A DNA stretch of 64,000 nt from Desmonostoc vinosum HA7617-LM4 (GTDB taxonomy: Bacteria; Cyanobacteriota; Cyanobacteriia; Cyanobacteriales; Nostocaceae). Positions within the stretch are counted from its first letter, which is position 1, and each line of letters starts with the position of its first letter. Under the pieces are notes generated by a model. That model did not search any database, had not been told where the DNA came from, and saw only the letters and a program-made list of their open reading frames with translations. A program made the translations under genes and the position numbers. The stretch is from contig JAHHHC010000013.1 of assembly GCA_019359515.1 (NCBI GenBank), positions 1 through 64,000 of the forward strand, in the 5' to 3' direction. This document shows, piece by piece, positions 26,034-44,573 of this stretch.

Positions 26034-26096
26034 AGATTGCCCGTTGTGGACGAAGAAATCCTTGTTTCACTTAGCATTCCCTGTTCCCTGTTCCCT

Positions 26097-28620: not shown

Positions 28621-28680
28621 TTTATTTGTAATATCTCAATATATGCGTGCAGTTAAGACTAGCACTCATTAAGCGATCGC

Positions 28681-28866: not shown

Positions 28867-28881
28867 AGGTTGTTTGAAAAG

Positions 28882-29044: not shown

Positions 29045-29249
29045 CCCACTTGTGTGGGAATATTTAGGTAATCTTTCCATAACTTCTGCACCCCGACGCA
29101 CCTCACAAGGGGTTCCTTTATCGATGACTTGCGATTTTCAACTTATTTAATACTTTTTCAGCAAGCCCTGATTACTGAGCAGGAAAAGCGATCGCTCTCC
29201 TTAAGCCTCAGTGTATGAGTGAAAAATCTGAAAAAATATCATATCTAAC

Positions 29250-29836: not shown

Positions 29837-29863
29837 GATTTATTGGCGCGGAACTAGAGGTAA

Positions 29864-30367: not shown

Positions 30368-30369
30368 CC

Positions 30370-30585
30370 TTATGCCTTTAAAAATTCATCTAGTCTGTCT
30401 CTCAAAAATGCTGCGTGCTGTCGAGTAAACGCAAAATTTATTGGATGTCCAGTTGATGCTTTTTGCTCATCTTCCTCAAATGGACTTCTTGATAGCATTC
30501 CTGCTATTAATATCCTATGTTCCTCATCAATTGCTACACGCACACCTGTAACAAATAACACTTTGTTTGGTTCTTCTTGACTCAT
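30370..30585 (-). CDS. small unrecognised protein, pair with the 167-residue gene
   Basis: 71 residues. VLFVTGVRVAIDEEHRILIAGMLSR forms two likely strands, and a C-terminal helix follows (RQHAAFLRDRLDEFLKA). The size and coupling resemble a small adaptor or antitoxin, but no family is recognisable. Confidence 0.6.
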   Translation of the reverse strand: MSQEEPNKVLFVTGVRVAIDEEHRILIAGMLSRSPFEEDEQKASTGHPINFAFTRQHAAFLRDRLDEFLKA

Positions 30586-30718
30586 ATTTACTTTTAACCT
30601 CTACTTTATCTAAAAACGAGAGAGTTAAATGCTGTAGTTAATACGGGATTTTCTCTCTCTAAATTTTATGGTAGCTCTACAAGAAGTAGAGCTTAACCAT
30701 AATCAAGCAGGCTTGTTG

Positions 30719-30898
30719 TTAGACTACTTTAATGATGAAAGTAGGATTTAAAGCCAGGGAAATAGGAGAACAAGTAAGGATCTGGAGTGTTACTTGAGAC
30801 TGAGTAACAGTTTTGTATTTTTGTTGAAAAGATTCACAATGCGTCCATGCAGAATAAGAGTCAAATCCTGTTTTGAAGTTTGAGTTTGATTCAGTCAT
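30719..30898 (-). CDS. possible small gene within the 30.6-31.0 kb gap
   Basis: A 59-codon frame (MTESNSNFKTGFDSYSAWTH at the start) has AGAGG about 7 nt before its ATG, a better ribosome site than most genes nearby. No homology recognised. It is the only coding candidate in the 405-bp gap between the 205-residue gene and the 71-residue gene; the rest of the gap is AT-rich. Confidence 0.35.
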   Translation of the reverse strand: MTESNSNFKTGFDSYSAWTHCESFQQKYKTVTQSQVTLQILTCSPISLALNPTFIIKVV

Positions 30899-30990
30899 AA
30901 TCTAACCTCTAAAAACTTATACCTTGATTATACGGAATTTTACTGCCAATATCATCAAATTCCGCAATATTTTTATACGAAAACTACAAG

Positions 30991-31608
30991 CTAAGTATAC
31001 TTAACACTCTTAATGCTCCCATCATCCTTAACAGACAAAATTTTCACCTTTACCGTCTGTCCTTCATGGAGAGAACTAGCCTGCTTCGGTTCCTTCTCAG
31101 TTAACTTAATCGTCCCCAAAATTTCATAGGTGACTTTGTTACCATTGATTTTGGTAACTTTAGCTGCGATAATTTGCTCAACTTGGAAGTTTTGCGATTG
31201 AGCAACTTTAGCAATTTCCGCTTGACGTGCTGACTCGAAAACAGGCGTTGTCGGAGGTGCAATTTCCCCAATTGGTACACCAGCATCTTTGTAATAACGC
31301 ATCAGGCGTGATACCCAGCCTAAAATTTGCAGCATGGTATAAGCATCGCTTACGCCTTTAAGAGCATAGCTACAAGCTTTCTCGATACTGCGGTAATAAT
31401 CAATAGTTTTACTGCTGTGTCCAATTTGTCTACCATTACTGATGAGAGTTTTTAGGTATTGGAAAAACTTGGAAGTAGCATTTGGCTGGTTTACAGAGGC
31501 GCGGAGATAAGCAACGGCTTTACTTAACTCGTTGACATCTGTATTATCTTTGACTAATGTTTGGGCAATTTTATGTGCTGTATGCCATTGTTCTTCATTC
31601 ATAGTCAT
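30991..31608 (-). CDS. last linked gene of the type III operon: helical protein with OB-like tail
   Basis: 205 residues. The first ~115 residues are helical (WHTAHKIAQTLVKDN, SKFFQYLKTLISNGRQIGHS, YYRSIEKACSYALKG) and resemble small-subunit-sized Cas11-like helical proteins. The C-terminal ~70 residues are beta-rich and end in GQTVKVKILSVKDDGSIKSV, an OB/S1-like pattern that may bind RNA. It starts 2 bp after the upstream RAMP gene, so it belongs to the operon. No named Cas family assigned. Confidence 0.62.
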   Translation of the reverse strand: MTMNEEQWHTAHKIAQTLVKDNTDVNELSKAVAYLRASVNQPNATSKFFQYLKTLISNGRQIGHSSKTIDYYRSIEKACSYALKGVSDAYTMLQILGWVSRLMRYYKDAGVPIGEIAPPTTPVFESARQAEIAKVAQSQNFQVEQIIAAKVTKINGNKVTYEILGTIKLTEKEPKQASSLHEGQTVKVKILSVKDDGSIKSVKYT

Positions 31609-31610
31609 AA

Positions 31611-32639
31611 TTAATACATTCCAGATGGGGGTTCGCGATCGCTAGGAAAGCGCAGTATATTTGTCAGCTGCTGGAGTTGTTCAGTTTGTACTAAACGGGA
31701 TGAATATGCAGCTTGAATTTGCTGTTGTATATACTTTTGTAAAGCTTCACCCGTGAGACGGTTACTTTCTGGAAGGGTGTAGGAAGTGTAGCGATCGCGC
31801 AAATTATCCGCTTGTTCAATTTCAAACACTGTTACTGTCATCGTTCCCATACCAATAGGCTTTCCACCTCCCACCTTCAAAGCAATTGGATGCTTTGGAT
31901 CTTGTCCAAAAACAATTAATAAAGTGCCTAATTCTTCTGATTTCAGGTTTTTGAAATGTAATTTGGTTGTAAAAATATATTCTCTACCTGCCTGCTGTAC
32001 TGGGATGCCAGCATTTTGTCCTTTATCAATAGCTCTAATTGTATGGTAATAAAATTTACGCCCTGCTACACGACCTTGGGTAAAATACGCACGTCGTTCG
32101 TCGGGACGAGGGCGGTACAATGACGGCATAAAACCAGTGGTAAAACCGATGCTTTCACATTTGGCATCGCTAAATTCCAGCAAGCCTTGCCAATCTAATG
32201 CGCCAAATAGTTGCGATGCGGGGCAGAGTTGTTCTTTATTTTTACAGGGTAGACGTTCTGAGGGTATGCGATCGCGATATCTAGAGGTAATTATCGCCAA
32301 GGTACTGTTAGTAATTGCTTCATAAACAGCGCGAATGCAACCTTTAAGTGAACTACCTTGAATAGACAACTTTTGATCAACATCCTGCACCATAGTTTTA
32401 ATTAAAGGGATGCGGTTGTTACCAACATCGCTACCCATGACAACAACGCCAGTGGAGACATGGAGAGGGGTTTGCACTTTTAAACGCAAAGATAACGCAC
32501 CATGTAGCCTATCAGTGCGGTACTTATGATGTCCCACTGGACGCTGTTTTGTAGGCGGTTCTTTGGGGAAGGAAACAAATTCATAGGGTTTTGGTGCAAT
32601 TTCGTCTTGTTGACGCTGTTGCGGACGATTAATAGTCAT
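31611..32639 (-). CDS. type III RAMP protein, TIGR03986-like
   Basis: 342 residues. LSLRLKVQTPLHVSTG begins the ferredoxin-like RAMP fold, LSIQGSSLKGCIRAVYEAI is the conserved GSSLKG helix, LCPASQLFGALDWQG the middle motif, and VGGGKPIGMGTMTV the glycine-rich loop that binds crRNA in this superfamily. The basic, disordered N-terminus (RPQQRQQDEIAPKP) and a ~60-residue helical tail are extra. It resembles the large RAMP found with Csx19 in cyanobacterial III-D loci. Its ATG overlaps the stop of the preceding gene (ATGA). Confidence 0.8.
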   Translation of the reverse strand: MTINRPQQRQQDEIAPKPYEFVSFPKEPPTKQRPVGHHKYRTDRLHGALSLRLKVQTPLHVSTGVVVMGSDVGNNRIPLIKTMVQDVDQKLSIQGSSLKGCIRAVYEAITNSTLAIITSRYRDRIPSERLPCKNKEQLCPASQLFGALDWQGLLEFSDAKCESIGFTTGFMPSLYRPRPDERRAYFTQGRVAGRKFYYHTIRAIDKGQNAGIPVQQAGREYIFTTKLHFKNLKSEELGTLLIVFGQDPKHPIALKVGGGKPIGMGTMTVTVFEIEQADNLRDRYTSYTLPESNRLTGEALQKYIQQQIQAAYSSRLVQTEQLQQLTNILRFPSDREPPSGMY

Positions 32640-33172
32640 TTATGTTCTCCTTCTAGGGTTAAAGCAACAAATTGCACTGCTGATGTTTCGCCATCAATAA
32701 AATATCTTTGTGCTAAAACTGGCTTACTTTTATCATTTTCCTCAATCCGTACATTAAGAGTTTTTGAATAAATAAATTCTTTAGGAAAGCGCACTTCATT
32801 GCGAGGATACCCATAAGCAGGATATGCATAGTAGGGGAATTTTTCTTGATTATTTGGTTCTATTTTCCAGCTATGGCCTACAGGTGTGAAATCAGAATAA
32901 TCACCTGCAATACTTAATAACAGAACATCATAAAGATTATTGTGTTGTAGTTTCCATCGGAGTTCATATTTGTGATTGAACATTTGCCCTTCCATCATAG
33001 GAAAGTCAATTTCGGTAGGTTGTTCTTCTCGAATTCCACTAACTTTGTGAGTCCAACGCAAAAAGTAATAACTAGGTTCAATTGCAAGTTTTGTAATTAA
33101 ACTTTGCAGTTTTAATCTTGAGAACAACTCTTTGCCAACACCAACAAAAGGCTTCATTTCTTCTATTTGCAT
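32636..33172 (-). CDS. csx19: Csx19-like type III-D subunit (tentative)
   Basis: 178 residues with no RAMP glycine-rich loop. YYFLRWTHKVSGIREEQP, MFNHKYELRWKLQHNNLYDVLLLS and a tyrosine/proline-rich stretch (FPYYAYPAYGYPRNEVRFP) are its main features. Size and position between two RAMP genes fit Csx19 of III-D systems; the assignment is from context more than motif. Stop overlaps the next start (ATGA), so stoichiometric expression with the complex is likely. Confidence 0.5.
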   Translation of the reverse strand: MQIEEMKPFVGVGKELFSRLKLQSLITKLAIEPSYYFLRWTHKVSGIREEQPTEIDFPMMEGQMFNHKYELRWKLQHNNLYDVLLLSIAGDYSDFTPVGHSWKIEPNNQEKFPYYAYPAYGYPRNEVRFPKEFIYSKTLNVRIEENDKSKPVLAQRYFIDGETSAVQFVALTLEGEHK

Positions 33173-33197
33173 TTTTATAGATAAATTTTAAACTAAA

Positions 33198-34148
33198 CTA
33201 TCTTGCTGTACTTAACAATAAATCTTTCCAAGACCTCACAGCACGTTCAAATAAATCTGTGATTTTACCTTCATGCCAAATTAACTGAACTCCAAAACCA
33301 AAATCCATTTCTCCCGCAGCAACAGGTGTATCTTGAAAATCAAGTTTTGGAAACCCATAAACATCTGCATCATCAACAAATTCACCAGCACCTAATAGCA
33401 TGGTATTCGACCAATCTTGATTACCTTTCAAGCTGTGAATTCGCCCATTCCGTAGTATGCAACCAGGATATTGCACAACAGCTTTTTTATATTCAACCTT
33501 TACCGTACCCAAACCGCGAGATTTAGCAAAACCCAAGCCAAACCAACCGTCATTTAAATCTCGCAATACTAAACCAATTAAACCCAATTGGGAGAGAGTG
33601 AAGTTTTTTAAATGAATTTTAGTTTTAAATTCCCCAGCCGTACAAACTTGATAATTGAAAGGCCCAACTGCTACTGAACCAAAAACTCTATCAATTGCTA
33701 CGCCATTACGTTCTTCAATTTTGAGAGGCTGAGACTTATCTGGATAAGCATCTTCAATTCTCAATCTGCTGGCAATAGAAGTATTACCAAAGATTTGATC
33801 AGTAAAACTAGATAGTTTGTAAATATCTGGTGCAGGTAAATCTTTACCATCTCTAGTTTTGAGATAATCATATTTATCACTTAACGGATCATTAGCCCAA
33901 AGTAATTTTTTAGAGTTGGGTTTTTCATCACCCACCGTCCTCACAATTCGCTCTGCATGGGCGCGAATCGCACCTTTTAAGCTACTTCCAGGTAAATATA
34001 TAGAACGTCCACCAGCATGATAGGTTTCCACAAATTCCATATCAGGTTTAGTGGGATCTGCTCCTTGTTTATCCGATTTAATAAGAATCGGCCCGTCAGG
34101 AATTAGGGTTAAGTTAATAGTGCAGTGATTAACAAATCTTTTGTGCAT
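33198..34148 (-). CDS. type III RAMP protein, Csm3/Cas7-like
   Basis: 316 residues. INLTLIPDGPILIKSD starts the fold; IYLPGSSLKGAIRAHAERI is the GSSLKG helix; DQIFGNTSIASRLRIEDAY and NGVAIDRVFGS are middle motifs; WFGLGFAKSRGLGTVKVEY is the glycine-rich loop. An aspartate-rich segment before the helix (GADPTKPDMEF) could supply the target-cleavage acid of Cas7-type subunits. A C-terminal ~70 residues extend beyond the core. Probably a backbone subunit. Confidence 0.8.
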   Translation of the reverse strand: MHKRFVNHCTINLTLIPDGPILIKSDKQGADPTKPDMEFVETYHAGGRSIYLPGSSLKGAIRAHAERIVRTVGDEKPNSKKLLWANDPLSDKYDYLKTRDGKDLPAPDIYKLSSFTDQIFGNTSIASRLRIEDAYPDKSQPLKIEERNGVAIDRVFGSVAVGPFNYQVCTAGEFKTKIHLKNFTLSQLGLIGLVLRDLNDGWFGLGFAKSRGLGTVKVEYKKAVVQYPGCILRNGRIHSLKGNQDWSNTMLLGAGEFVDDADVYGFPKLDFQDTPVAAGEMDFGFGVQLIWHEGKITDLFERAVRSWKDLLLSTAR

Positions 34149-34178
34149 GACTATATTTAGTTAATGACCTATTGCAAA

Positions 34179-34799
34179 TTAAGCTGCTACTAAATTATTT
34201 AGTTGTACTTCGCATTGTTGGAAGACGAAGTTAACGATAGCAAATAATTTATCTAGTTCATAAATAGTGAACGGAGTAATATTTTTTGTGAAAAAATTAC
34301 CTTCTAACTTACCAAATTGCCATACTCCGCCATTAGAAACAATTCCGTAGATAGTGATTGGGTATTCTCCATTTAATCTTTGAGCAGCAATCATCTCTGC
34401 TAAACATTGCGCCCAACCTGTTTCAAAGTTATCTTGCTTTGCTTCTACTAAAATGAAGTATGGTTTGTCAAATACAACTTTTCCTAATGGAGAACGTTTA
34501 GCTAAAATATATTCAGGAAAGCCAGATAATTTTTCGTCATAATTCAACGATTGGTGACTCCATAAAATAAAATGGTGTCGATAGATTTTCCAAACTTCTT
34601 TGATAACGGGATAAATGAGATTTTCGCAGATAGCAAACTCTGAATTGTCAACAACTGCATCCCGCATCATTAGTTCTAAATCTTCACGAAAATAATCAGA
34701 AACGGTAAAAGTAATTTCACTAATAAAATTTGCTTCGGTGTAAGTTACTTGGAACGCTTTAAGAACTTCACCAATGGTTTTGAAACTACTGAAAGCCAT
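34179..34799 (-). CDS. PD-(D/E)xK-like protein embedded in the type III operon
   Basis: 206 residues. SGFPEYILAKRSPLGKVVFDKPYFILVEAK followed by a helix with a conserved glutamine (WAQCLAEMIAAQRLN) matches the PD-(D/E)xK core: an acid before a strand, then ExK on the next strand. TIYGIVSNGGVWQFGKL supplies further strands. Relatives are common as stand-alone genes in cyanobacteria. It has no visible sensor domain. Lying between two RAMP genes with 10- and 30-bp gaps, it is transcribed with the complex and may be an accessory nuclease. Confidence 0.72.
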   Translation of the reverse strand: MAFSSFKTIGEVLKAFQVTYTEANFISEITFTVSDYFREDLELMMRDAVVDNSEFAICENLIYPVIKEVWKIYRHHFILWSHQSLNYDEKLSGFPEYILAKRSPLGKVVFDKPYFILVEAKQDNFETGWAQCLAEMIAAQRLNGEYPITIYGIVSNGGVWQFGKLEGNFFTKNITPFTIYELDKLFAIVNFVFQQCEVQLNNLVAA

Positions 34800-34809
34800 A
34801 TTAACCTCC

Positions 34810-35682
34810 TCAAGAATTTTGTGTTGCTTCGGTTGTATGAGTCTTAGCTTTATTTTCTCTTAAATAATTGATCAGCGAGTTCGTCCAATCTTCTTTCAAA
34901 GTTAATTCTTTAACATCTTGATGGCTTGGTAGTTTCTCACCTGGATTGCTGTTTACCAATTCTTGGAGGTATGTGAGTAATTTTTCTGGATCGTTATTGA
35001 CATCAAGCCAGTACATCTTGTCAATTTCTAGTTTAACGACACCCAAGCCACGCGATCGCCCTCCACCCAAAGGTATTTGTTCGGTTTCAAACTGGTGTAA
35101 ACCAATCATCAACAGTCCCAGTTCCCAAGGTTCTGCATTCTCGACTACAGCCTTAAACTCAAATTGTGTCGCGGCTGGAACTACCTGAAAATCGTAGAGT
35201 TTCCCATCTGCGGCTGTTTCAGTGTCTCTATCAATGGCTACACCATCTCTTTCTTGATATTGTCCAAACCAGGTGTTAGAAACCACTATTAAATCTCGCA
35301 CTTGAAATTTACTAGCAATCCAAGGTGAACCGAATAAATGAGAAACTGCATCAGTAATTTTTAAGAAAGCTTGTGTTAAAGCAATATCATCATTTTGATA
35401 CCGTTCTTTGTAGGTTTGAACCAATTTATTTCTTTCTATGCTGATAAAATTTGCAGGGTCTTCCGCTAAACTAGAATCAATTCCACGTAAGAAACTTTCA
35501 AGACGCGATCGCAACGCACCTTTAAAGCTAGAACCTGGTATTAATGGTCTACCCAAAGCATCTTTAATCACAGGTAAATCAGAACCAATAGGTTCAGTAG
35601 AGCGTCCGGCGCTAATTCGTAATGCGGTGACTGTCCAAAGAGTTCCTGTTATTTCTAGGCGGTTTTTAAATATTTCAAACAT
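34810..35682 (-). CDS. csm3: type III RAMP protein, Csm3-like
   Basis: 290 residues from the ATG at MFEIFKNRLEITG; a start 24 bp upstream is less likely. RISAGRSTEPIGSDLPVIKD carries, in IGSDLPV, an aspartate where Csm3 has its target-RNA-cleaving Asp; GRPLIPGSSFKGALRSRLE and LGGGRSRGLGVVKLEI complete the Csm3 pattern, and SHLFGSPWIASKF, DGVAIDR are middle motifs. Predicted backbone subunit that cuts bound target RNA. Confidence 0.83.
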   Translation of the reverse strand: MFEIFKNRLEITGTLWTVTALRISAGRSTEPIGSDLPVIKDALGRPLIPGSSFKGALRSRLESFLRGIDSSLAEDPANFISIERNKLVQTYKERYQNDDIALTQAFLKITDAVSHLFGSPWIASKFQVRDLIVVSNTWFGQYQERDGVAIDRDTETAADGKLYDFQVVPAATQFEFKAVVENAEPWELGLLMIGLHQFETEQIPLGGGRSRGLGVVKLEIDKMYWLDVNNDPEKLLTYLQELVNSNPGEKLPSHQDVKELTLKEDWTNSLINYLRENKAKTHTTEATQNS

Positions 35683-35702
35683 AGTTTCAATGTATAAGAA
35701 AT

Positions 35703-36149
35703 TCAATTTGTCTTGCCATCTCGTAAATATTTGAGATGGCGACTACCATAACCAAGATAGCGCCGAATTAATTCAATCCATACTAATTTAATATCAGATG
35801 AATCAGCTTCTTTAGCAATACTTTCTGCTAACTGTACTAAACGACCACCTTTACTTTCTGTACCAATATCACTAACTATTTTTTCTGCTAGCGATTCTTG
35901 GCCTCGACCCCATTTTTTGTCACGTCCTACCTGATAACGAAGAAAATTTTTAATTACCTCCGGACTATCTGTGGTATCTGCAACTCGTAATAAATTACGA
36001 AATTGAGATTCTTCTAAATCACCATAAGATTGTCTATTATCTAAAGCCTCTTGAATCCAGATTACTAATTGGTCTTCAACTTGACGAATGCCTTTTTGAA
36101 TTTTTAATTGAACTTGCTGTTCTTGATGCTGTTCAGCAGCTTGACTCAT
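35703..36149 (-). CDS. Cas11-type small subunit candidate (Csm2/Cmr5-like)
   Basis: 148 residues, entirely helical and charged. SQFRNLLRVADTTDSPEVIKNFLRYQVGRD and WGRG are its distinctive segments, and WIELIRRYLGYGSRHLKYL closes it. Size, helical nature and position next to Csx10 and Csm3 fit the small subunit that lines the target-binding groove. Start and upstream stop overlap (ATGA). Identification is mainly by context. Confidence 0.6.
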   Translation of the reverse strand: MSQAAEQHQEQQVQLKIQKGIRQVEDQLVIWIQEALDNRQSYGDLEESQFRNLLRVADTTDSPEVIKNFLRYQVGRDKKWGRGQESLAEKIVSDIGTESKGGRLVQLAESIAKEADSSDIKLVWIELIRRYLGYGSRHLKYLRDGKTN

Positions 36150-37450
36150 GCTAGATTACCTCGCAATATACTATGAAACTCATTACAAATTTGCACTTGT
36201 CCGAAGCCTTCAGAAGTGCGATCGCCTACTCCCCAAAACTCTATTTTTTTTAACTTATCTAGCCATAATTCTGGTTTATCAGTACTAAATAAATATACTG
36301 CACCACGATTGATAACTAACTCCATATCTTTCATTAGTCCCCAAGCAGAATTCCACCCAGAGCGATTATCATAACTGCTATAGGCGACTTCTAGCTTTAA
36401 TGGTATATCAGTAACTTTGGCAAATTTTTTGAGCATTATTTCTGTAATTACAGTTGTATGTCGCCAATTATCTAAAAGAATAGCGTCAGATTGTAAATCA
36501 AGTGTAAAAAAAGTACGACCATTCAAGAGATTTTCTTGAGGACTACCAAAAACTGATTCGTAAAGACTCCAACGCTCTTTGAGTGTATGATTAAATTTAT
36601 CAATTCTTGTGTCTATTTCTGTGCAATAATCATTGATATCTGCTTTTATTGTCACTTTACCTAACCCGCGAGAAGTTGCACCACCTAAGCGAAATGTATT
36701 AGAATGACGATTGACAAAAGCAGCTAGTTTATCAGCAAGTTCTTCATCCTCAACTAAAATTGAACTACGATAAACATAATCTTCCCAATGTTTAACTTTC
36801 GCTTGAGGATTTTTTAAGAAAGATTCATTTAAAACTTCAATACTATAAAGAATCTCTTCTTGAGAAGTAGAGCGACGACGGTTAATACCCACACGAGTTA
36901 AAAAGCGTGTATTTACAGAATGATTGCGATATTTATATTTAAGCTTGTCGTCACTACTTTTACTGTAAAACCCACCATAAGGTTCAACTCGTCCTAAATC
37001 TTTGGGACAATTCGGTTCATAAGTAAAGTTGAATGCTTCTGCACAAAAACGGTCAATTAGAGTGTCAAAAACCCCGTTACCTTTAGTAGGAAGAAAACCA
37101 GGATTTGTTTTAGAACTAACAGCAGTTGCGGGTAATATCATTACCACATCATCAACTATTTGATTAATGGTTTCCTTTTTAGAGTTAGACTCATCGACAA
37201 CTTTAGCAACTGCTGGGTAAGCGTTTTGAAAGATAGCTGCATTATCTTCCAAAAATAAAGCCTGAAAATCTCCGCCATTCTTACTTAAATCTGTAAACTG
37301 CTGTCCCGATTGTTGTAAAATTTGTGTTGCGATCGCACCCCGAATCACAGAACCGGGAATATGATCTAATGCTTCGCTGACGGAACCTGGTTTTTTATGT
37401 GCGATCGCCAGTGGAGATTTTGCTGTAATCTTTAACTTAATCTGCTTCAT
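36146..37450 (-). CDS. csx10: Csx10-like RAMP protein of type III-D
   Basis: 434 residues from the ATG at MKQIKLKITAKSPLAIAH, which overlaps the upstream stop (ATGA). HIPGSVIRGAIATQIL replaces the usual GSSLKG helix, as in Csx10; TRVGINRRRSTSQEEILYSIE and FRLGGATSRGLGKV follow; a second RAMP-like half ends in VGDRTSEGFGQVQI. Two RAMP halves and the ~430-residue length are typical of Csx10, the Csm4/Cmr3-type (Cas5-like) subunit near the crRNA 5' tag. Confidence 0.82.
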   Translation of the reverse strand: MKQIKLKITAKSPLAIAHKKPGSVSEALDHIPGSVIRGAIATQILQQSGQQFTDLSKNGGDFQALFLEDNAAIFQNAYPAVAKVVDESNSKKETINQIVDDVVMILPATAVSSKTNPGFLPTKGNGVFDTLIDRFCAEAFNFTYEPNCPKDLGRVEPYGGFYSKSSDDKLKYKYRNHSVNTRFLTRVGINRRRSTSQEEILYSIEVLNESFLKNPQAKVKHWEDYVYRSSILVEDEELADKLAAFVNRHSNTFRLGGATSRGLGKVTIKADINDYCTEIDTRIDKFNHTLKERWSLYESVFGSPQENLLNGRTFFTLDLQSDAILLDNWRHTTVITEIMLKKFAKVTDIPLKLEVAYSSYDNRSGWNSAWGLMKDMELVINRGAVYLFSTDKPELWLDKLKKIEFWGVGDRTSEGFGQVQICNEFHSILRGNLA

Positions 37451-38160
37451 TTTGACATCTTTGGTAGTAACTGCATCCAAGCAGAGTCATCTTGAGGTAG
37501 TTTTTCCAGTTCCTCCCAGTGCAACCAACCTAACCCCGCAGATTTACTTCCACCCAATGCATGAATATGCCGCAATCCAGCTAAAATTAAGGCTTTGGCA
37601 TAGGATGGATATCCAGGTAATAAGTGAATTGCGCCTTGAAATTTCAATTGTGAATTAGGGGGAGAAGTTTCTAGAAAATAAAGCTTTTGGTTTTCTGCGG
37701 TACGTCTTCTACGGTTAATAGTTACCCCAGGACGAAACGTTTCTTGTAAAGTATCTTTTTCCCAATCACATATCAAATCATCAACAACTATTCGTGATGG
37801 TAAAATCGGATTACCAAAAATTTTTGAAATCGGACAGTGATAACCTTTATAGTTCTCTAGTTTATAGTCTGAATGATATTTACTATCAACTTGTGCTGGG
37901 GTAGGACAAAGTTCTTTTGCTATTGGTGCGAAAAAAATTTGCCATCCTAATCCTTGCATTATTTTTTCACATTCGTGACGTAATCTTCCTTTTAGCTGCG
38001 AAGCGGGAATAATTAATTGTCCTTTGGCATTGCGGACAACAGTTTTATCAGCAAGTGTCCCATCTGAACCACCTGCACCAATACATAATGCAGTATCAAT
38101 AACTGCGCTGAGGTTAATTGATGTTACTCGATTTTCAGTTAAATTGTTTAATAAAATCAT
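37447..38160 (-). CDS. csm3: type III RAMP protein, Csm3-like (short)
   Basis: 237 residues. INLSAVIDTALCIGAGGSDG starts the fold; LADKTVVRNAKGQLIIPASQLKGRLRHECE gives the conserved aspartate region and SQLKG helix; GVTINRRRRTAENQKLYF and LGGSKSAGLGWL complete the pattern. ISKIFGNPILPSRIVV is the middle motif. The Asp in LADKT aligns with the target-cleaving Asp of Csm3. The predicted function is crRNA binding and target RNA cutting. Immediately downstream of cas10 (37 bp). Confidence 0.84.
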   Translation of the reverse strand: MILLNNLTENRVTSINLSAVIDTALCIGAGGSDGTLADKTVVRNAKGQLIIPASQLKGRLRHECEKIMQGLGWQIFFAPIAKELCPTPAQVDSKYHSDYKLENYKGYHCPISKIFGNPILPSRIVVDDLICDWEKDTLQETFRPGVTINRRRRTAENQKLYFLETSPPNSQLKFQGAIHLLPGYPSYAKALILAGLRHIHALGGSKSAGLGWLHWEELEKLPQDDSAWMQLLPKMSK

Positions 38161-38197
38161 GACTAATCACCAAATTTTCCTATGATTTTAACCAGTT

Positions 38198-40525
38198 TCA
38201 AGCTTGGGTATTCTCGTGACTCTCCTCTTTGTTTGTAGGGAGGAGTTCGGGGTTAGGTGTTTTTGGAATAAAAGGATATAAATCTACTAACTCGCGCCAA
38301 ATAGTTTCATAGGTCGTTTTCGACTTATCATTATTTTTACTATTTTCTTTTAAAGACATCCAAGGTGCTAAATTACCATTATTTTTAGGGTCTTTTGGTT
38401 TACACCATGCCTCATCAAACAGAGTTTTAAGTAGTTTCTGAGCTTTTTTATCACTTAATCGTACTCTAAAATAACGGTAATTTAATATTGCTGTTTGCTT
38501 ACCTCGTTCTAGTAAACTACGGATTTGATAAAGTTGCGATCGCGGAAAATCAGCTTCTTTTAATGCCTTAGCTGTTTCTAAAATTCCACCAATTTCATCT
38601 AAAGTATATGGTGCGCCGTAAAGTTTTAGTTTTTGTTCACCAGGGCCAGCTTTTATTAAACCTTGTGTGCGAAATTCACCCACATTTGATGAAATCATTG
38701 TCACTGCTTTCATGACTAAAAAATCTATAGTTCCACCATAGTATTTTTTTTCCTTTAATTCTTTAGCATATTTCTTTGCAGACTTCATCAACTGACTTGT
38801 AAGTTTCTCTGCATAGTAAATAGGCGTATCTTCAGCCGCAATTAATACACCTGCCGACATACTTAACCTACATTGACTTCTATTATCTAGTTTATTCTTA
38901 GCCTCCAGTTGATTTTCTGTCTGAGGTGGATGATAGCGATGTACAAACTGAGAATTATAAGTTTCATCTGTGATATATGGATTTTTAGGTTTATCTGTTG
39001 TACTTTCATTACTTTTAGTTTTGAGAATCTCTTCAAACTCTTCACAGATAGTTTTAGTAATAGCTAACGCTTTATCAGCAGGAACAATCAAAAATACATC
39101 ATCACCACCAATTGTAATAATTTCAAAGGGATGAATCCATTTATCGTTACGTTTTTCTTTCTCTTTATCTGGGATATTTCCTAATTTATGCGGATGTAAA
39201 TGTTGAAATAATGCTTTGTATACAGACTTTTCAGTTGCTTCAGAAACATCATTACTGAAATTTTGATATTCCTCCGGCGATTTGATTTTTTGGATATAGC
39301 CACCCATATTATTACCATCAGCATAAATATAAGCAACAAAACCCTTGGGTTGACTTGAGTTACCAATTTCAATTAATGAACGCGCTTCAGTTACTTCTGA
39401 TTTTGGCAAATCGCCGTAATACAAATTTTCTAATTGATTTTCTTTTAAGTAATTCTCAAACTTTTCTACCCAACTTTCAATATATATCTTTTCTCCTGGC
39501 TGCCAAGTAAATTTTCTATAGTAATACCAATTATTAGAAATATTGCTACGTTTAGCTATATTTCCTACTAGACGTTTACGTGCTAAAGATTCAGAAAAAT
39601 TGGGTTCCCCAGGAAGTTCCCCAACTCGCATGACAGCAGAAGCATTATCACTTGTGTCCCTAACTAAATAAGGATGTGTCTCAAATATTGCGGGATAAAG
39701 TCTAGTTGGGCGGTTGTCTGCGGTAATATTTCCACTACGACGTTGGTTAAATAAAGAAGTTAGCTTAGTAACTGTTTCATTAAAACTCTTACGCGCTTCA
39801 AACTGCTTATCTATATCTGCAATATCAGGTTGAGCAAAATATACCTGGATAATTTCATTATTTTGATTTTGACGATATTTTTCTAACCAAAATGTATTTT
39901 CGTTAATTTGATCTGGAAGTAAGCCAAAGCGCATTTCTATTAACTTAAACTTAGCACCAACAGCACAGGAATTTGCAGTTAAAGTTTCTTGTGTATAACG
40001 TCTTTCAATAGCATTTGCTAAGTCATCGATAAACTTTGCAGGGCAAAATGCTAACAGTTTACCACCTGTAGAATAGATTAATAATTGTGGAATTAATGCT
40101 ATTTCTACACTAGGAAAATTATTCTTCAACCATTGCGATTCGTATTTACCAAAAAAAGCAGGCAAATCGACTAAATTGATTCTATCGAGTAGCGCCGATG
40201 CACCGCGAATATCGGGAAGTTTGGTTTGTTCAAAGACGTATTGCTTAACTTTAGTAACACCACCATAAACTAAGCCAATTTGAGAATTCCAAAGTTGTGG
40301 ATAGTCTTGTTGATATTTTTTTAATTCCTCTACTGTCTGGGGAAACGGTAGGTTTTGCAACACCTGTACTTGTTCAAGATAGGGAAGTATTTCTGTTGGA
40401 ACCTCTTTTTGTGCTTGCAATTGCTGTCGCATTCTTTGCATTGCACTTGTGTCATCACCTGCATCGTTGCAAAACAGACACCAAGCTAATCCAATATCAA
40501 TTTTGTTGAGTAATTCTAACTTCAT
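38198..40525 (-). CDS. cas10: Cas10, type III-D, cyclase-competent, no HD domain
   Basis: 775 residues. Two Palm domains: YADGNNMGGYIQKI (~400) in the first position and IGGDDVFLIVPADKAL with GGDD at residues 473-476, the active site for cyclic oligoadenylate synthesis. RLSMSAGVLIAAEDTPIYYAEKL follows, then the helical D4-like end. The N-terminus (WCLFCNDAGDD) shows no HD phosphohydrolase motif, so target-activated DNA cutting is not expected. KLPDIRGASALLDRINL is a typical Cas10 segment. Large subunit of the effector complex; its product would signal to an effector nuclease. Confidence 0.93.
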   Translation of the reverse strand: MKLELLNKIDIGLAWCLFCNDAGDDTSAMQRMRQQLQAQKEVPTEILPYLEQVQVLQNLPFPQTVEELKKYQQDYPQLWNSQIGLVYGGVTKVKQYVFEQTKLPDIRGASALLDRINLVDLPAFFGKYESQWLKNNFPSVEIALIPQLLIYSTGGKLLAFCPAKFIDDLANAIERRYTQETLTANSCAVGAKFKLIEMRFGLLPDQINENTFWLEKYRQNQNNEIIQVYFAQPDIADIDKQFEARKSFNETVTKLTSLFNQRRSGNITADNRPTRLYPAIFETHPYLVRDTSDNASAVMRVGELPGEPNFSESLARKRLVGNIAKRSNISNNWYYYRKFTWQPGEKIYIESWVEKFENYLKENQLENLYYGDLPKSEVTEARSLIEIGNSSQPKGFVAYIYADGNNMGGYIQKIKSPEEYQNFSNDVSEATEKSVYKALFQHLHPHKLGNIPDKEKEKRNDKWIHPFEIITIGGDDVFLIVPADKALAITKTICEEFEEILKTKSNESTTDKPKNPYITDETYNSQFVHRYHPPQTENQLEAKNKLDNRSQCRLSMSAGVLIAAEDTPIYYAEKLTSQLMKSAKKYAKELKEKKYYGGTIDFLVMKAVTMISSNVGEFRTQGLIKAGPGEQKLKLYGAPYTLDEIGGILETAKALKEADFPRSQLYQIRSLLERGKQTAILNYRYFRVRLSDKKAQKLLKTLFDEAWCKPKDPKNNGNLAPWMSLKENSKNNDKSKTTYETIWRELVDLYPFIPKTPNPELLPTNKEESHENTQA

Positions 40526-40632
40526 ACTAAAAGTAATTGTTTATCTATGTAACAAATTTTACGCGATTGTCACGATATAGATGAATTAGATACCTATATC
40601 TTCTGAGAATTCAGCTGAATTAAGAAAGATTC

Positions 40633-41583
40633 TTAATTTTTTGATATAAAAATTGACTTCATATACTTAAGTATATTTTCTGAAACACTTTTTACCTGTC
40701 CTCGCACCCAAGGGCCACTTGTAATTTCTAAATATGGTTCTGAACGATGCACCTCCTCTACCTCCGACAAACTACTATGAATTACTGCTACAGGGATTAA
40801 ATTGCCTCTATCTCGACAAAATTCATGCCATACACCTACCGCTTCTGGCTTTGAACTAATAATTAAGTAGTGGGTACAAGCTTCTAAAATTGGTAGTTTC
40901 TCTGGCTGTACCATGCCACCCACATCGACAATTACTAAAGATTTTTGTCGTCGCAGTTGCAATATTGCTTGAGCATGATAGGGAAAAAACCTTTCTGTTA
41001 ACGCACCCTTGTTACGTTGTTTGAAGGCTTCGATTTCTGCATCAGTCGTCTGTTGCCCTAATTCTAAAACGTAGTTACCTTCTCCATCCCAATGAGCGCG
41101 TTGTAGGTAAATATCAGGATGCTCAGATAATAGTGCTTGAAACAAAGCGTGAGAGAGTACACTTTTGCCACTGTCTGGGGGCCCGACAATCATCACTGCT
41201 GGACATAAACCAGTTTCTACGTTTCTTGGCTGAATAAGTTCATGATTTTGCCGTCCATTTGGTGGACTGACGGGAATTACTTGACCGATGTAGACTTGAT
41301 GTGAGTTAGTGACGGATACAACTGCTCCTATACGAGGATCATAGCAAGCTACCCAAGCGGTAGGATGCAGTTCGTGGGTTAAATATGAATAAATCCACAT
41401 CGGTGCGCGACCAGAAATCACCACACCACCTGTAGTATCAATACCAGAGGGCAATTCCAGATTTTTGATATCCTGTGGTTGTATTATGTGATCGCTACTG
41501 GTCAATTCAATCGATAGCACTTGATACTTCAAATTTTGTACCAGCAGCGATTTACTTAAGTGTAAGTGCAGAGATATAATCAT
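40633..41583 (-). CDS. csx3: Csx3-AAA fusion, predicted cyclic tetra-adenylate ring nuclease
   Basis: 316 residues. The first ~105 are Csx3: VVISGRAPMWIYSYLTHELHPTAWVACYDPR with His73 and Asp82 at the conserved positions, and VVSVTNSHQVYIGQ. Csx3 family proteins degrade cyclic tetra-adenylate. A P-loop domain follows (Walker A GPPDSGKS, 134-141; VIVDVGGMVQPEK as a Walker-B-like strand), the AAA/kinase-like fusion seen in cyanobacterial Csx3. It would switch off signalling by Cas10 (107 bp downstream). The role of the ATPase part is unknown. Confidence 0.87.
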   Translation of the reverse strand: MIISLHLHLSKSLLVQNLKYQVLSIELTSSDHIIQPQDIKNLELPSGIDTTGGVVISGRAPMWIYSYLTHELHPTAWVACYDPRIGAVVSVTNSHQVYIGQVIPVSPPNGRQNHELIQPRNVETGLCPAVMIVGPPDSGKSVLSHALFQALLSEHPDIYLQRAHWDGEGNYVLELGQQTTDAEIEAFKQRNKGALTERFFPYHAQAILQLRRQKSLVIVDVGGMVQPEKLPILEACTHYLIISSKPEAVGVWHEFCRDRGNLIPVAVIHSSLSEVEEVHRSEPYLEITSGPWVRGQVKSVSENILKYMKSIFISKN

Positions 41584-41810
41584 CCCCTCCTCAAATTTTT
41601 AGGAATTTTCGTTTCTTTGCATATTCTGTCATACTTACTAGAAGATAGGTCTTCTACTGAATTAGTTATTACAACATCAAGAATGTAAATAAATACAGAT
41701 CCGCTAATTATGTCATCATCAATTCATTACCTCACATGAGTTTTTAAAGTTTAACAGTATTTTTAAACACATATAAGCGCTCAATATTAAGTAAAATTAA
41801 ATACCTTTTA
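41584..41810. promoter_or_regulatory. divergent promoter region between csx3-AAA and the WYL regulator
   Basis: 227 bp, AT-rich, between two divergently transcribed genes; it must hold promoters for both. The A/T-rich stretch TATTTTTAAACACATATAAG (41758-41777) could include a -10 element, but no inverted repeat strong enough to call an operator was seen. Confidence 0.4.
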
Positions 41811-43337
41811 TTGAGAGAAAAATCGATTGATTGTACTGGTAGTTTGATTAAACAGGTTTTCAATTTGACTCAAGAATTTTATTTATTGGCTACACCACAA
41901 ATGTTGCAATGGCTAGCAGCTGGACAATTAGCAAATCGGCTGGTGCGATCGCTGCGGTTATTGGTGCTGATCAATAAACTCTATAATAGTGAAACAGGCT
42001 GGAAAGACAAACTACCTATAACTTTTACATACTCACAGTTACGCGATCGCTTGTTTGCTGCTCATCACCCCAAAAGCGAGAAATTAAATGCTCAACAAAT
42101 CGCAACATTGTGTAGCGAACGCAGTTGTATTTGTCATCAAACTTTTGCAGAAATTGTATTTGAGCAGAACTTCCAGCAACCTGACACTCAATGGGAAGAT
42201 GAAATTATTCTATTGACTGGAATTGAGCAAAAACAGTTACAAGATACACTGCATAAATGCCCTTTTGCTACAGTGCATCGTTCTATTCGTGATGACTTAA
42301 AACAGTTAGTCAAGTTGGGGTGGTTATATTCCCCTGGTCAAGGAAAGTATCGATACCTGACAAAGCAAGAATTACCAAAAGTTTCTACTTCTACCTTAGC
42401 AACTACAAATAACCTAAATAGCTTATCATACCTTTCAGAAGAACAGACTTGGGAACTGTTACGAGTGTTAGAATCAATATCTTTTGTGCAACCAAATTTA
42501 TCATTAATTATTGGCAAATTATGGGAGCGAATCACAGATAGTTTCTCAGTTGGTAGGTTATATGATCAAGATCCGCCCCAAAGAATATTCTTGCATTTAG
42601 ACTACATTCTTTCTTTGCCAATGCAAGACCGTGTAGACAATTACCAACAACAGATAGAAGAACTTTGGCGCAAGCCACCTGGTGGTGTAATGCAGTTTGA
42701 GTATTGGATTGCAACCCAAGAAAATAAAGTCAAAGTTACTGTCTATCCAGTATGTTTGCATTACTGGCGACGCGCTAAATATCTTAGTGCTTATGGAATA
42801 GACCTTAATGGCAATATTGGATGGCATAATTATCGCTTAGATCGGATTGCTAGCGATCGCCTCAAAGTTTTGCCTTGGGGAGACCCTCTTGTGCCGCAAC
42901 AATTAAAGCAGATGTGGCGAACAGGAGATTTACCCACATCAGAATATATAGCTAAGGAATTAAAAGCCGCTTGGGGTTTTAATTTCTATCTCAAAAAAGA
43001 ATTGCTGATCCTCCGTTTTCCAGCAGATTTTGCTAAGTGGTATGTAGATAATACCACCAGACATCTTACTTTTCGTGAGGTTTTACATGACCAACTACCA
43101 CAATTGATCACTCAAAATATTTCCCATGCACAAGAACGCCAACAGTTATTAAAAATTATTAGTCAATCTCCTCAAGAAGATGTATATTACATGGCTTGGA
43201 TACGCGCTGGTGACATTAACGTTTCTATGCGTTTGCGAGAATGGCGACCGAATGGCGAAGTTATTGCCCCACTATCTATTCGTCAACAAATGATATCAGA
43301 AGTTACACAAGAATTAGAAAATTATCAACATTGTTAA
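41811..43337 (+). CDS. WYL-domain CRISPR-associated regulator, TIGR03985-like
   Basis: 508 residues. An N-terminal region (TPQMLQWLAAGQLANRLVRSL) includes winged-helix-like segments (TVHRSIRDDLKQLVKLGWLY) for DNA binding. A WYL-type ligand domain follows at ~300-400 (LHYWRRAKYLSAYGIDL then GWHNYRLDRIAS), and a C-terminal extension (YYMAWIRAGDINVSMRLREW). The pattern matches the cyanobacterial TIGR03985 CRISPR-associated family. No ATG exists near the start; TTG at 41811 is the first usable codon. It probably controls the divergent cas operon. A nucleotide ligand is possible but unproven. Confidence 0.75.
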   Translation: MREKSIDCTGSLIKQVFNLTQEFYLLATPQMLQWLAAGQLANRLVRSLRLLVLINKLYNSETGWKDKLPITFTYSQLRDRLFAAHHPKSEKLNAQQIATLCSERSCICHQTFAEIVFEQNFQQPDTQWEDEIILLTGIEQKQLQDTLHKCPFATVHRSIRDDLKQLVKLGWLYSPGQGKYRYLTKQELPKVSTSTLATTNNLNSLSYLSEEQTWELLRVLESISFVQPNLSLIIGKLWERITDSFSVGRLYDQDPPQRIFLHLDYILSLPMQDRVDNYQQQIEELWRKPPGGVMQFEYWIATQENKVKVTVYPVCLHYWRRAKYLSAYGIDLNGNIGWHNYRLDRIASDRLKVLPWGDPLVPQQLKQMWRTGDLPTSEYIAKELKAAWGFNFYLKKELLILRFPADFAKWYVDNTTRHLTFREVLHDQLPQLITQNISHAQERQQLLKIISQSPQEDVYYMAWIRAGDINVSMRLREWRPNGEVIAPLSIRQQMISEVTQELENYQHC

Positions 43338-43549
43338 CAAATTTAAGCCCCTCTATATCCTGTGTACGTCCGTTTATAAGGTGGTTGTAGCCCTAACCAC
43401 AATATGACTTTATTTATGTAGCTAAGTTCTCTGTGTTCCTCTGCTACCTGGTGCGTTTAAAAATGTTCTGACTTAACTAGAAATCGCTATATTAGTTTTA
43501 ATAGAAATAATCTCCACGTCAAAACCTAAAATTTTATTTAAGTATCTAA

Positions 43550-44182
43550 GTGATGATGCAGCGATTAACTCAAGAACAATTAAGCCAAATAATCACTGAA
43601 GTAGAAGGACTAAAATCCCGGCAAGAAGCTGAACTCGATCAACAGCAGGTGAGGGAAATTCTACAGGAGTTAAACTTACCGCCAGAGTTGCTAGATGAAG
43701 CGCTAATTCAGTTACGGCGTCGGCAAGTGTTAGAAGTGCAGCAACGGAGAAATCGTTGGATAGCCTCTGGGGTAGTTGTGGTTTTAGTGGTGGCGATCGC
43801 ATCTACAATATTTTTCATGCAGCAGCAAAACTCTACACTTTCGCGGGTATCTGCTCAACAAGACCGCATTACTTTAGTGCAGGCTAGTAATAGCAACCTC
43901 AAAACTATCTCCCGTCAAGACAATCTAGAGGTTTTTTATCGTGTCACTTTGCAAGATGCACCTATCGGGAAAACCTTAAATCTCTCCTGTAATTGGATTG
44001 ATCCTAATGGTAAAATTGTCAAGCAAAATAGTTATCAAACCCGCGAAATTAATACGTCTGTTTGGAATACCCACTGTCGTTACACAATTAATTCTGCTAC
44101 ACCCGTTGGTAATTGGCGAGTGCAGATGTTCTTAGAAGGGCGGCAGCTTAGCGATGAAACATTCACAATTCGTAATTCGTAA
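43550..44182 (+). CDS. single-pass membrane protein with Ig-like extracytoplasmic domain
   Basis: 210 residues. A cytoplasmic N-terminal helix-rich part (LTQEQLSQIITEVEGL, VREILQELNLPPELLDEAL) is followed by a membrane helix (~72-92, IASGVVVVLVVAIASTIFFM) and a ~100-residue beta-rich domain with a Cys pair (LNLSCNWIDPNG, NTHCRYTI, VGNWRVQMFLEG). GTG start; two ATG codons follow at once. The last residues, TIRNS, and the stop are formed by an ATTCGTA heptamer repeat. Function unknown. Confidence 0.68.
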   Translation: MMMQRLTQEQLSQIITEVEGLKSRQEAELDQQQVREILQELNLPPELLDEALIQLRRRQVLEVQQRRNRWIASGVVVVLVVAIASTIFFMQQQNSTLSRVSAQQDRITLVQASNSNLKTISRQDNLEVFYRVTLQDAPIGKTLNLSCNWIDPNGKIVKQNSYQTREINTSVWNTHCRYTINSATPVGNWRVQMFLEGRQLSDETFTIRNS

Positions 44183-44340
44183 TTCGTAATGACGCGACGC
44201 TCGATGACTCGCTCTAAGCGAAGCTATACCGCAGGCTTTACGCTGACGCTCGTACCGACGCTCGATGACTCGCTCTAAGCGAAGCTATGCCGCAGGCTTT
44301 ACGCTACGCTATCGCTACCGCTGCGAAGCGCGTAATTAAG
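44166..44340. repeat. dispersed palindromic repeat, expanded copy of the 2541 family
   Basis: It begins with three ATTCGTA heptamers, then GACGCGACGCTC as at 2541; CGACGCTCGATGACTCGCTC and CTAAGCGAAGCTAT each occur twice, so the core has been duplicated internally. It ends in CGCTGCGAAGCGCGTAATT, as the 2541 copy does. Confidence 0.82.
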
Positions 44341-44347
44341 TTTTGTA

Positions 44348-44499
44348 TCTAAATTAATACTAATAACCCCGGCTATACAGACAAAACCCACGGAGGTGGG
44401 TTTCAAAATCTTGATTTTCCGTGTTTTCCAAAGGAGGTGGACTAAGCTTTGTGTTGTAGCGAATTATATATTCGCCCAAAACTTTTCAAACTCTAAGAG
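44348..44499. repeat. dispersed repeat with flipped hairpin, copy 2
   Basis: Partner of 28882-29044 in the same orientation, but the hairpin reads AAACCCAC-GGAG-GTGGGTTT, the loop being the complement of the one in copy 1. It lies just upstream of the first DUF3131 gene. Confidence 0.85.
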
Positions 44500-44573
44500 A
44501 CGAACGTTAGTTCAGTTTCCAAGTTGGGAAGAATGAGTTTGTTTAAACACCTCAAGCAAGAGGTAGCTTGCAA

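What the first reader, a model, noticed from the sequence alone, without database searches (positions are those of the whole stretch)
40633..43337. Csx3-AAA ring nuclease and a WYL regulator share a divergent promoter region next to cas10
Csx3 proteins remove cyclic tetra-adenylate. Here Csx3 is fused to a P-loop domain and faces a TIGR03985-like WYL regulator across 227 bp. WYL domains bind ligands, sometimes nucleotides, so the regulator may read the same signal that Csx3 degrades. That would make a feedback loop: Cas10 makes the signal, Csx3 clears it, the regulator senses it.
Basis: partly seen in the sequence, partly recalled or inferred. Interest (0 to 1): 0.65.

Follow-up and report, generated by a model that had tools for sequence, protein, structure and literature searches.

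The report
CRISPR regulator with its DNA switch
A cyanobacterial CRISPR defence operon carries, in its own promoter, a conserved DNA site that very probably binds the neighbouring WYL regulator, so a proposed feedback circuit gains a concrete switch to test, although the signal it responds to is still unknown.

Summary
The gene pair is real: a Csx3–P-loop fusion (40633-41583, -) faces a TIGR03985 WYL regulator (start more likely TTG 41865 than 41811) beside a type III cas10 operon. Databases already name both families. New here: a perfect inverted repeat, TAGAAGA-N4-TCTTCTA (41639-41656), in the csx3 promoter. It belongs to a family-wide motif, NNGAA-N8-TTCNN: 24 of 56 WYL upstream regions at spacer 8, 0-2 at any other. 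It precedes 37 of 58 csx3 operons but 13 of 412 other operons; a -10-like box follows it in 36 of 36 distinct sites. Half-sites follow the WYL recognition helix, with exceptions. WYL tracks Csx3 more than Cas10, and WYL, operator and csx3 stay together while Cas10 types swap. So "the regulator acts on this region" is well supported by inference; repression is likely from position. That it reads cyclic oligoadenylate is untested and not excluded. Ring-nuclease activity here is doubtful: the H80 position is Asn in the window and six relatives, and two of those have lost more catalytic residues while the P-loop stays invariant. The P-loop domain looks SIMIBI-like rather than AAA+.

The parts
40633..41583 (-). 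csx3 fused to a P-loop NTPase domain (316 aa); Csx3 about residues 20-105, P-loop GPPDSGKS at 134-141, Walker B-like VDVGG at 219-223
   Evidence: PF09620 6.3e-29, TIGR02579 94.7 bits, PADLOC Csx3-AAA 1.8e-99; H57/H60/D69/R71 positions kept, H80 position is Asn
41639..41656 (.). operator: perfect inverted repeat TAGAAGA-TAGG-TCTTCTA (core TAGAA-N8-TTCTA)
   Evidence: found by the repeat finder; only exact match to the pattern in the 7.2 Mb genome; same element upstream of csx3 operons in relatives; family-wide N8 spacing
41623..41628 (-). putative -10 hexamer of the csx3 operon (CAGAAT, 4 of 6 matches), 10 nt past the operator
   Evidence: read; a -10-like hexamer (4 of 6 or better) lies 5-12 nt after the operator in 36 of 36 distinct sites, shuffle mean 9.0, max 16
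41865..43337 (+).
   Evidence: TIGR03985 348 bits; WYL PF13280 25.5 bits; start by alignment to 8 relatives
38198..40525 (-). cas10/cmr2 with GGDD cyclase motif, next gene of the operon led by csx3
   Evidence: TIGR02577 168 bits; FEIITIGGDDVFLI
30991..38160 (-). rest of the effector operon: three Csx7-type RAMPs (one over cut-off), Csx10, Csx19, Csm3-like, Csx21, and two genes without a family match (35703-36149, 34179-34799)

Best explanation
The TIGR03985 protein is a wHTH-WYL transcription factor that binds, as a dimer, the palindrome at 41639-41656 inside the promoter of the operon that begins with csx3 and continues into cas10. The site spans about -40 to -21 of the inferred promoter, so the likeliest effect is repression that is lifted when the WYL domain binds a nucleic-acid-type ligand, as proposed for CapW and BrxR. 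Inferred from sequence, strongly: where it binds and which operon it controls. Inferred from position and precedent: dimer, repression. Not shown: the ligand. The regulator, its operator and the csx3 gene form one inherited control cassette that is swapped between different type III effector complexes. In the Nostocales members like this one the Csx3 part may serve more to bind cA4 (gating the P-loop NTPase) than to destroy it.
For: Spacer test: 24 of 56 upstream regions at N8, 0-2 at each other spacer 0-16; 60 shuffles mean 0.38, max 2. Hold-out: GAA/N8 was the best of 222 core/spacer combinations in 200 of 200 random halves and hit 7-17 of the other 28. Location: 37 of 58 csx3, 30 of 61 WYL, 8 of 33 other cas, 13 of 412 other operon leaders. 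Promoter fit: -10-like hexamer 36 of 36; at 5/6 match 25 of 36 (shuffle mean 2.5, max 8). Co-variation: of loci with an exact site upstream of WYL, 5 of 6 with HR(S/T)(L/I)R helices have T(A/T)GAA and 21 of 21 with other helices have (T/C)GGAA; 2 changes of operator class on the WYL tree, shuffled 6-10. In trans: in G087 WYL and the csx3 operon are on different contigs, each over 10 kb from the contig end, and the operator is kept. Same genome: the second WYL, with another helix, has TGGAA-N8-TTCCA at RT-cas1. WYL follows Csx3 among 71 Cas10 genomes: 37 both, 3 WYL only, 4 Csx3 only, 27 neither. Cas10 type changes 14 times on the WYL tree (shuffled 13-21), csx3 branch 5 (10-20).
Against: Many loci lack an exact 5-bp-arm site: 21 of 58 csx3 operons and 32 of 56 WYL upstreams. 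The GAA core was first noticed in the same loci; without naming a core the spacer-8 excess is smaller: 33 of 56 against 11-26 at other spacers and a shuffle mean of 12.2, max 23. Synechocystis 6803 has no exact site between slr7080 and sll7078. The helix/half-site rule has exceptions: L012/L013, L069, L008/L066, and a second GGAA-type site in L085. Loci are related and divergent csx3 and WYL leaders often share one site, so counts are not independent. The position does not exclude an activator. No binding or expression data. The WYL structure model was too poor to use (pLDDT 50).
Confidence: 0.75

Rival explanations
1. One reading: the WYL domain binds cyclic oligoadenylate itself, so Cas10 makes the signal, Csx3 removes it and WYL reads it.
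For: Cyclase-competent Cas10 accompanies it: 45 of 46 Cas10 examined have GGDD, one AGDD; 37 of the 46 lie in a locus with a recovered WYL. WYL tracks Csx3. CARF regulators of another fold (Csa3) recognise cA4 (PMC8699464, abstract in listings).
Against: 63 of 105 Cas10 loci have neither WYL nor a PF09620 hit within 15 kb, so the regulator is not general for type III loci. Several associated Csx3 domains look catalytically impaired. WYL domains with known ligands bind ssDNA or ssRNA (PMC9122601 passages; PMC11804915 and PMC12340889 abstracts in listing).
Confidence: 0.2
2. The palindrome binds another dimeric regulator (a global CRP/NtcA-like or LexA-like one) and WYL is only a passenger.
For: Palindromes are typical of many regulators; WYL binding is not shown; exceptions to the helix rule exist.
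Against: The exact site occurs once in the own genome, and sites with up to 2 mismatches are at control level (46 vs 50), unlike a global regulon. Half-site class follows the WYL tree. The own-genome III-A locus without WYL has no exact site in 20 kb (a weak control, since under one is expected there by chance at the shuffle rate).
Confidence: 0.1
3. WYL is an activator (as PafBC or DriD) rather than a repressor of the csx3-cas10 operon.
For: The site overlaps the -35 region; the scan finds only promoter pairs at shuffle level in the window region (2 found, mean 2.4); PafBC and DriD activate (abstracts in listing).
Against: A centre near -30 of the inferred promoter is closer to steric blocking (inference); BrxR, CapW and Sll7009 are negative regulators (passages).
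Confidence: 0.3
4. The repeat is an RNA hairpin or terminator rather than a protein site.
For: It is a short perfect inverted repeat.
Against: No terminator-like site found in 41500-41950; it lies upstream of the -10-like box, so outside the inferred csx3 transcript; fixed N8 core spacing and half-site change by regulator clade do not fit a hairpin.
Confidence: 0.03

Closest known systems
CapW (CBASS) and BrxR (BREX) wHTH-WYL-WCX repressors
   Same: WYL regulator next to a defence operon; BrxR binds an inverted repeat near a -10 (PMC9122601 passages); CapW represses its own defence promoter (PMC9122588 passages)
   Different: no significant sequence match of TIGR03985 to WYL proteins in the PDB by profile search (E 0.36 or worse); its site is a fixed GAA-N8-TTC core (BrxR's repeat is 11 bp with a 5-bp spacer), and its partner is a Csx3 gene
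Sll7009, WYL negative regulator of CRISPR1 (I-D) in Synechocystis 6803
   Same: cyanobacterial WYL regulator of a CRISPR operon (as told in PMC4012209, passages)
   Different: different CRISPR type; sequence and operator not compared here
sll7078 / slr7080 of Synechocystis 6803 CRISPR3 (TIGR03985 / Csx3-AAA)
   Same: same divergent gene pair, 228 bp apart (slr7080 identified by position and family)
   Different: no exact operator found there, and the slr7080 product lacks histidines at the H57, H60 and H80 positions (read against the close relative L044); window keeps H57/H60
Crn3/Csx3 ring nuclease (A. fulgidus)
   Same: window Csx3 domain matches at 65 bits and keeps H57, H60, D69, R71 positions
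   Different: H80 is Asn; fused to a P-loop domain

Membership tests
TIGR03985 CRISPR-associated WYL family | score above NCBIfam cut-off of 60 bits | tested here: met
   348 bits, profile 1-249 of 249
WYL domain (PF13280) | score above gathering cut-off 21.8 | tested here: met
   25.5 bits
CapW/BrxR-like defence WYL repressors | sequence relationship to CapW/BrxR | tested here: inconclusive
   profile search of PDB sequences gives WYL-named proteins only at E 0.36-1.4; WYL model unusable
CapW/BrxR-like defence WYL repressors | inverted-repeat site in the promoter of the neighbouring defence operon | tested here: met
   (site present; binding not shown)
CapW/BrxR-like defence WYL repressors | represses the operon; released by ligand | not testable with these tools
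   needs expression and binding assays
Crn3/Csx3 ring nuclease | Csx3 family score | tested here: met
   PF09620 100 bits (cut-off 21), TIGR02579 94.7 (cut-off 55.4)
Crn3/Csx3 ring nuclease | H57, H60, D69, R71 kept | tested here: met
   alignment to AfCsx3 and relatives
Crn3/Csx3 ring nuclease | H80 kept (called absolutely conserved in PMC7371418) | tested here: not met
   Asn in window, L019, L062-L065 and L073
Crn3/Csx3 ring nuclease | cA4 cleavage | not testable with these tools
   biochemical assay needed
AAA+ ATPase (label of the fused domain) | AAA+ fold | tested here: inconclusive
   PF13191 AAA_16 21.7 bits, under cut-off 32.6; closest structures ParF/MinD/ParA, Z 13.9, 2.7 A over 155 residues, model pLDDT 69
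Type III-D CRISPR effector operon | Cas10 with Csx10 and Csx19 | tested here: met
   TIGR02577 168 bits, TIGR02674 429 bits, PADLOC Csx19 7.8e-39; that these define III-D is recalled and from the models' labels

The most novel reading that the evidence does not exclude
The WYL regulator and the Csx3-P-loop protein together form a cyclic-oligoadenylate-gated transcription switch: the fused Csx3 domain, with a decayed active site, senses cA4 and drives a SIMIBI-type NTPase, and this protein or its linear adenylate product releases WYL from the csx3-cas10 promoter, so the type III operon amplifies or damps itself according to its own second messenger.
Probability: 0.2. Interest if true: 0.85.

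Novelty: new variant of a known kind. Interest (0 to 1): 0.6.

Why it matters
How type III CRISPR operons are switched on in cyanobacteria, and what WYL domains read in immunity, are open. An 18-bp operator, a regulator with largely predictable half-site specificity and a control cassette that moves between effector complexes make this testable with one gel-shift and one reporter. The decay of Csx3 catalytic residues beside an invariant P-loop suggests that some annotated ring nucleases may be sensors.

Tried and rejected
WYL structure: the 9-sequence AlphaFold model was too poor (pLDDT 50), so no fold search was run with it. PDB searches with the WYL protein or a 42-row profile gave no significant match (best E 0.79, 0.045); the gp120 rows there are judged chance. 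CARF effectors in the own genome: two PADLOC families gave nothing, but the tool warns that nothing rang anywhere, so absence is not claimed. A whole-genome regulon by the operator pattern: sites with up to 2 mismatches are at control level (46 vs 50), so none is claimed; of the five 1-mismatch places I looked at two (C75, C12; loci L079, L080), and both lie inside ORFs that match none of my gene clusters. No CRISPR array was found in 26000-44600; the tandem-repeat list for the whole window shows none that I recognise as an array. The promoter scan of the window region alone is at shuffle level. AAA+ structures do not appear among the 50 rows shown; this is no proof of absence.

Literature: nine searches, with terms such as slr7080, TIGR03985, Csx3+WYL+cyanobacteri, WYL+CRISPR+Synechocystis, Csx3+ring nuclease+AAA and operator/repressor/promoter terms, listed no paper that I recognised as describing this operator. 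Only open-licence PMC papers are held. Seven papers were opened, all by 'find' passages only (PMC9676260, PMC7371418, PMC7283877, PMC4012209, PMC12409355, PMC9122588, PMC9122601); the others were seen as listings.

Rows dropped before counts: L001-L003 and L075-L078 (duplicates of other loci). Regions around 58 places were fetched (56 for TIGR03985 genes over cut-off, of which L021 holds two genes, and two for sub-cut-off fragments, L060 and L061; the window itself covers one more); 57 WYL genes were recovered by my ORF caller, L013's was not; the spacer test used 56, L048 being too short upstream. One search uses 61 WYL and 58 csx3 operon leaders over all loci held then, including near-identical pairs (L007/L068, L008/L066, L072/L084). 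One search drops repeated 22-nt flanks and hits too near an end. One search uses Cas10 rows over cut-off and under 950 aa as listed (105 rows; longer ones were left out as presumed I-D, and the tool did not list all rows). Csx3 branch labels contained errors of my pattern and were redone. Cas10 types are crude (similarity cluster and length).
Full report
What is there. The window holds a type III CRISPR effector operon on the minus strand. From its 5' end it runs csx3-P-loop (40633-41583), cas10/cmr2 with GGDD (38198-40525), then Csx7-type, Csx10, Csx19, Csm3-like and Csx21 genes and two genes without a family match. Facing it is a TIGR03985 WYL protein (348 bits). In 7 of 8 relatives the longest possible ORF starts at the residue coded by TTG 41865 or one residue later, so the gap is probably 281 bp. 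The own genome has a second, 31% identical TIGR03985 gene beside RT, cas1 and RAMP genes, and only one PF09620 hit.

Is the pairing more than chance? In 386 cyanobacterial genomes, 50 have TIGR03985 over cut-off, 47 have PF09620 and 43 have both. Both could simply be type III genes, so I used Cas10 as a control. Among 71 genomes with a listed Cas10 under 950 aa, 37 have both, 3 WYL only, 4 Csx3 only and 27 neither. At locus level (15 kb) the counts are 24, 11, 7 and 63 of 105. WYL follows Csx3, not type III in general. The PF09620 search also misses some divergent Csx3-like genes (G019, G076 and G093 had none, but their loci L026, L044 and L045 hold Csx3-like proteins), so the link is if anything understated. 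The divergent layout is not obligatory: in L070, L071 and L074 cas1 lies next to the csx3 operon (an exact operator remains in L074, not in L070 or L071), and in L065 three CRISPR-repeat-like units lie between the two genes.

The operator. Aligning the intergenic regions of the window and five relatives showed a palindrome upstream of csx3 that stays while much of the rest diverges. In the window it is TAGAAGA-TAGG-TCTTCTA at 41639-41656, the only exact match to TAGAAGANNNNTCTTCTA in 7.2 Mb. Other subfamilies have TTGGAA...TTCCAA, TTGAA...TTCAA and CGGAA...TTCCG, with eight bases between GAA and TTC. Test: palindromes with 5-bp arms ending in GAA occur in 24 of 56 upstream regions (210 bp) at spacer 8, in 0-2 at every other spacer from 0 to 16, and in 0.38 of 56 on average in dinucleotide shuffles (max 2 in 60 shuffles). 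Without naming a core the excess is smaller: 33 of 56 at spacer 8, 11-26 at other spacers, shuffle mean 12.2, max 23. Because the core had been noticed in the same loci, I ran a hold-out: among 222 core/spacer combinations, GAA/8 was the best in all 200 random halves and hit 7-17 (mean 12.0) of the other 28 loci. By location: 37 of 58 csx3 operon leaders, 30 of 61 WYL, 8 of 33 other cas and 13 of 412 other leaders; csx3 and WYL leaders often share one site, and at least three of the 13 (L047, L049, L050) share a region with a counted cas operon. In the csx3 direction a -10-like hexamer (4 of 6 or better) follows within 5-12 nt in 36 of 36 distinct sites (shuffle mean 9.0, max 16), at 8-10 nt in 32 of them; at 5 of 6 matches it is 25 of 36 against a shuffle mean of 2.5 (max 8). 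In the WYL direction it is 23 of 36 at 4 of 6 (shuffle mean 11.1, max 18) and 1 of 36 at 5 of 6. The element is therefore part of the csx3 operon promoter; a weaker role at the WYL promoter is possible.

Why WYL is the likely binder. Among loci with an exact site upstream of WYL, 5 of 6 proteins with an HR(S/T)(L/I)R recognition helix have T(A/T)GAA half-sites (window, L019, L006, L029, L039; L012 has TGGAA), and 21 of 21 with other helices have (T/C)GGAA. On a 63-row WYL tree the half-site class needs 2 changes (36 tips; 200 shuffles: 6-10). In G087 the regulator and the csx3 operon lie on different contigs, each over 10 kb from the contig end, and the operon keeps TAGAA-N8-TTCTA; in G195 they are also on different contigs, but near contig ends. 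In G282 the csx3 operon lies about 13 kb from WYL and has no exact site. In the own genome the second WYL, with helix VRKSLQ, has TGGAA-N8-TTCCA sites at RT-cas1 and at a gene of a NYN-domain cluster, though not directly upstream of itself; the III-A locus without WYL has none in 20 kb, a weak control. Against: L012 and its relative L013, L069, L008/L066 and a second L085 site break the rule; 21 of 58 csx3 operons and 32 of 56 WYL upstreams have no exact site (some have 4-bp-arm versions); Synechocystis 6803 has none between slr7080 and sll7078. Nostoc edaphicum pNe_2 has a perfect one.

A cassette that swaps effectors. On the WYL tree the Cas10 type changes 14 times (36 tips, shuffles 13-21), the Csx3 branch 5 times (46 tips, shuffles 10-20), the operator class twice. 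The window's WYL sits in a 5-row clade (SH-aLRT 100); the three other members for which a Cas10 type was read have Csm1 (III-A type), whereas the window has the long III-D-type Cas10. So WYL, operator and csx3 behave as one module that is recombined with different effector complexes.

The Csx3-P-loop protein. The window keeps the positions of H57, H60, D69 and R71 but has Asn at H80 (numbering by an offset of 6 on the chain). L019, L062-L065 and L073 share the Asn; L065 also lacks H57/H60, and L073 lacks H57, H60, D69 and R71. In a second branch, a 101-121 aa Csx3-like protein that keeps its histidines stands before a ~305 aa Csx3-like P-loop protein; of ten such long proteins (L020, L024, L026-L028, L030, L032, L034, L036, L037) nine have lost both H57 and H60 and L036 has lost H60. 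In the 14-row alignment the P-loop motifs GPPxSGKS, HWDGEGNY and VDVGG are invariant. In AfCsx3, H60A and D69A were inactive and R71A and H80A 'highly reduced' (PMC7371418, passages). The predicted P-loop domain is closest to ParF, MinD, ParA, GPN GTPases and CTP synthetase (Z up to 13.9), i.e. SIMIBI-like (the class name is recalled), on a model of pLDDT 69.

Mechanism. Best supported: a WYL dimer on the operator in the csx3-cas10 promoter. The operator covers about -40 to -21 if the hexamer is at the usual -12 to -7 (recalled convention), which favours repression; BrxR, CapW and Sll7009 are precedents (passages). Activation is not excluded. The ligand is unknown. All but one of 46 Cas10 examined have GGDD, so a cOA signal is available; but WYL domains with known ligands bind ssDNA or ssRNA.

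Known and new. Already known: both families, their association with type III loci (PADLOC labels; Csx3 long form in cyanobacteria), and WYL repressors of defence operons. I found no report of the GAA-N8-TTC operator, its half-site code, or the swapping of the WYL-operator-csx3 cassette in the searches listed under Tried and rejected.

Noticed in passing
L055:9134-9718 and downstream of WYL in other loci; L087:9302-9883: An HD_4 (RelA/SpoT-type HD, function recalled) protein gene of about 194 aa is the next gene after WYL on the same strand in 12 of 57 WYL loci (Pfam), and in Synechocystis 6803 it lies 23 bp after sll7078. A possible nucleotide hydrolase in the same cassette; not next to WYL in the window.
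   Followed up: partly
L087:6672-7604 (slr7080 by position and family): Slr7080, called a putative ring nuclease in PMC9676260 (passages), lacks histidines at the H57, H60 and H80 positions by sequence.
   Followed up: partly
L020, L024, L026-L028, L030, L032, L034, L036, L037: Tandem of a short, histidine-keeping Csx3-like protein and a longer Csx3-like P-loop protein that has lost H57 and/or H60: possible catalytic plus sensing pair.
   Followed up: partly
G000:C69, C64:73950, C80:27509: The own genome has three type III Cas10 loci: this one, a second beside the other WYL, and a III-A locus without WYL or exact operator.
   Followed up: partly
L033, L038, L040, L041: A TIGR03985 branch faces genes that look like chemotaxis CheA/response regulator genes (recalled from sequence, not family-searched), with a GGAA-N8-TTCC site upstream.
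   Followed up: no
window WYL residues C101, C106, C108 (508-aa numbering): Conserved C-x4-C-x-C(-H) cluster in the N-terminal part of TIGR03985; CxC nearly invariant over 42 rows. Could bind metal.
   Followed up: no
window 29423-29836 and 29864-30367 (-): Small gene pair past the effector operon; the first has a weak HEPN match (E 0.0011, 19.5 bits, under cut-off 22), the second none. Possible toxin-antitoxin pair.
   Followed up: no
L066:5333-5689: A 23S rRNA-intervening-sequence-type protein (PF05635 1.8e-26) is the next gene upstream of csx3.
   Followed up: no
window 10230-11508, 21169-21956, 44195-44310: Tandem repeats of period 120, 210 and 61.
   Followed up: no
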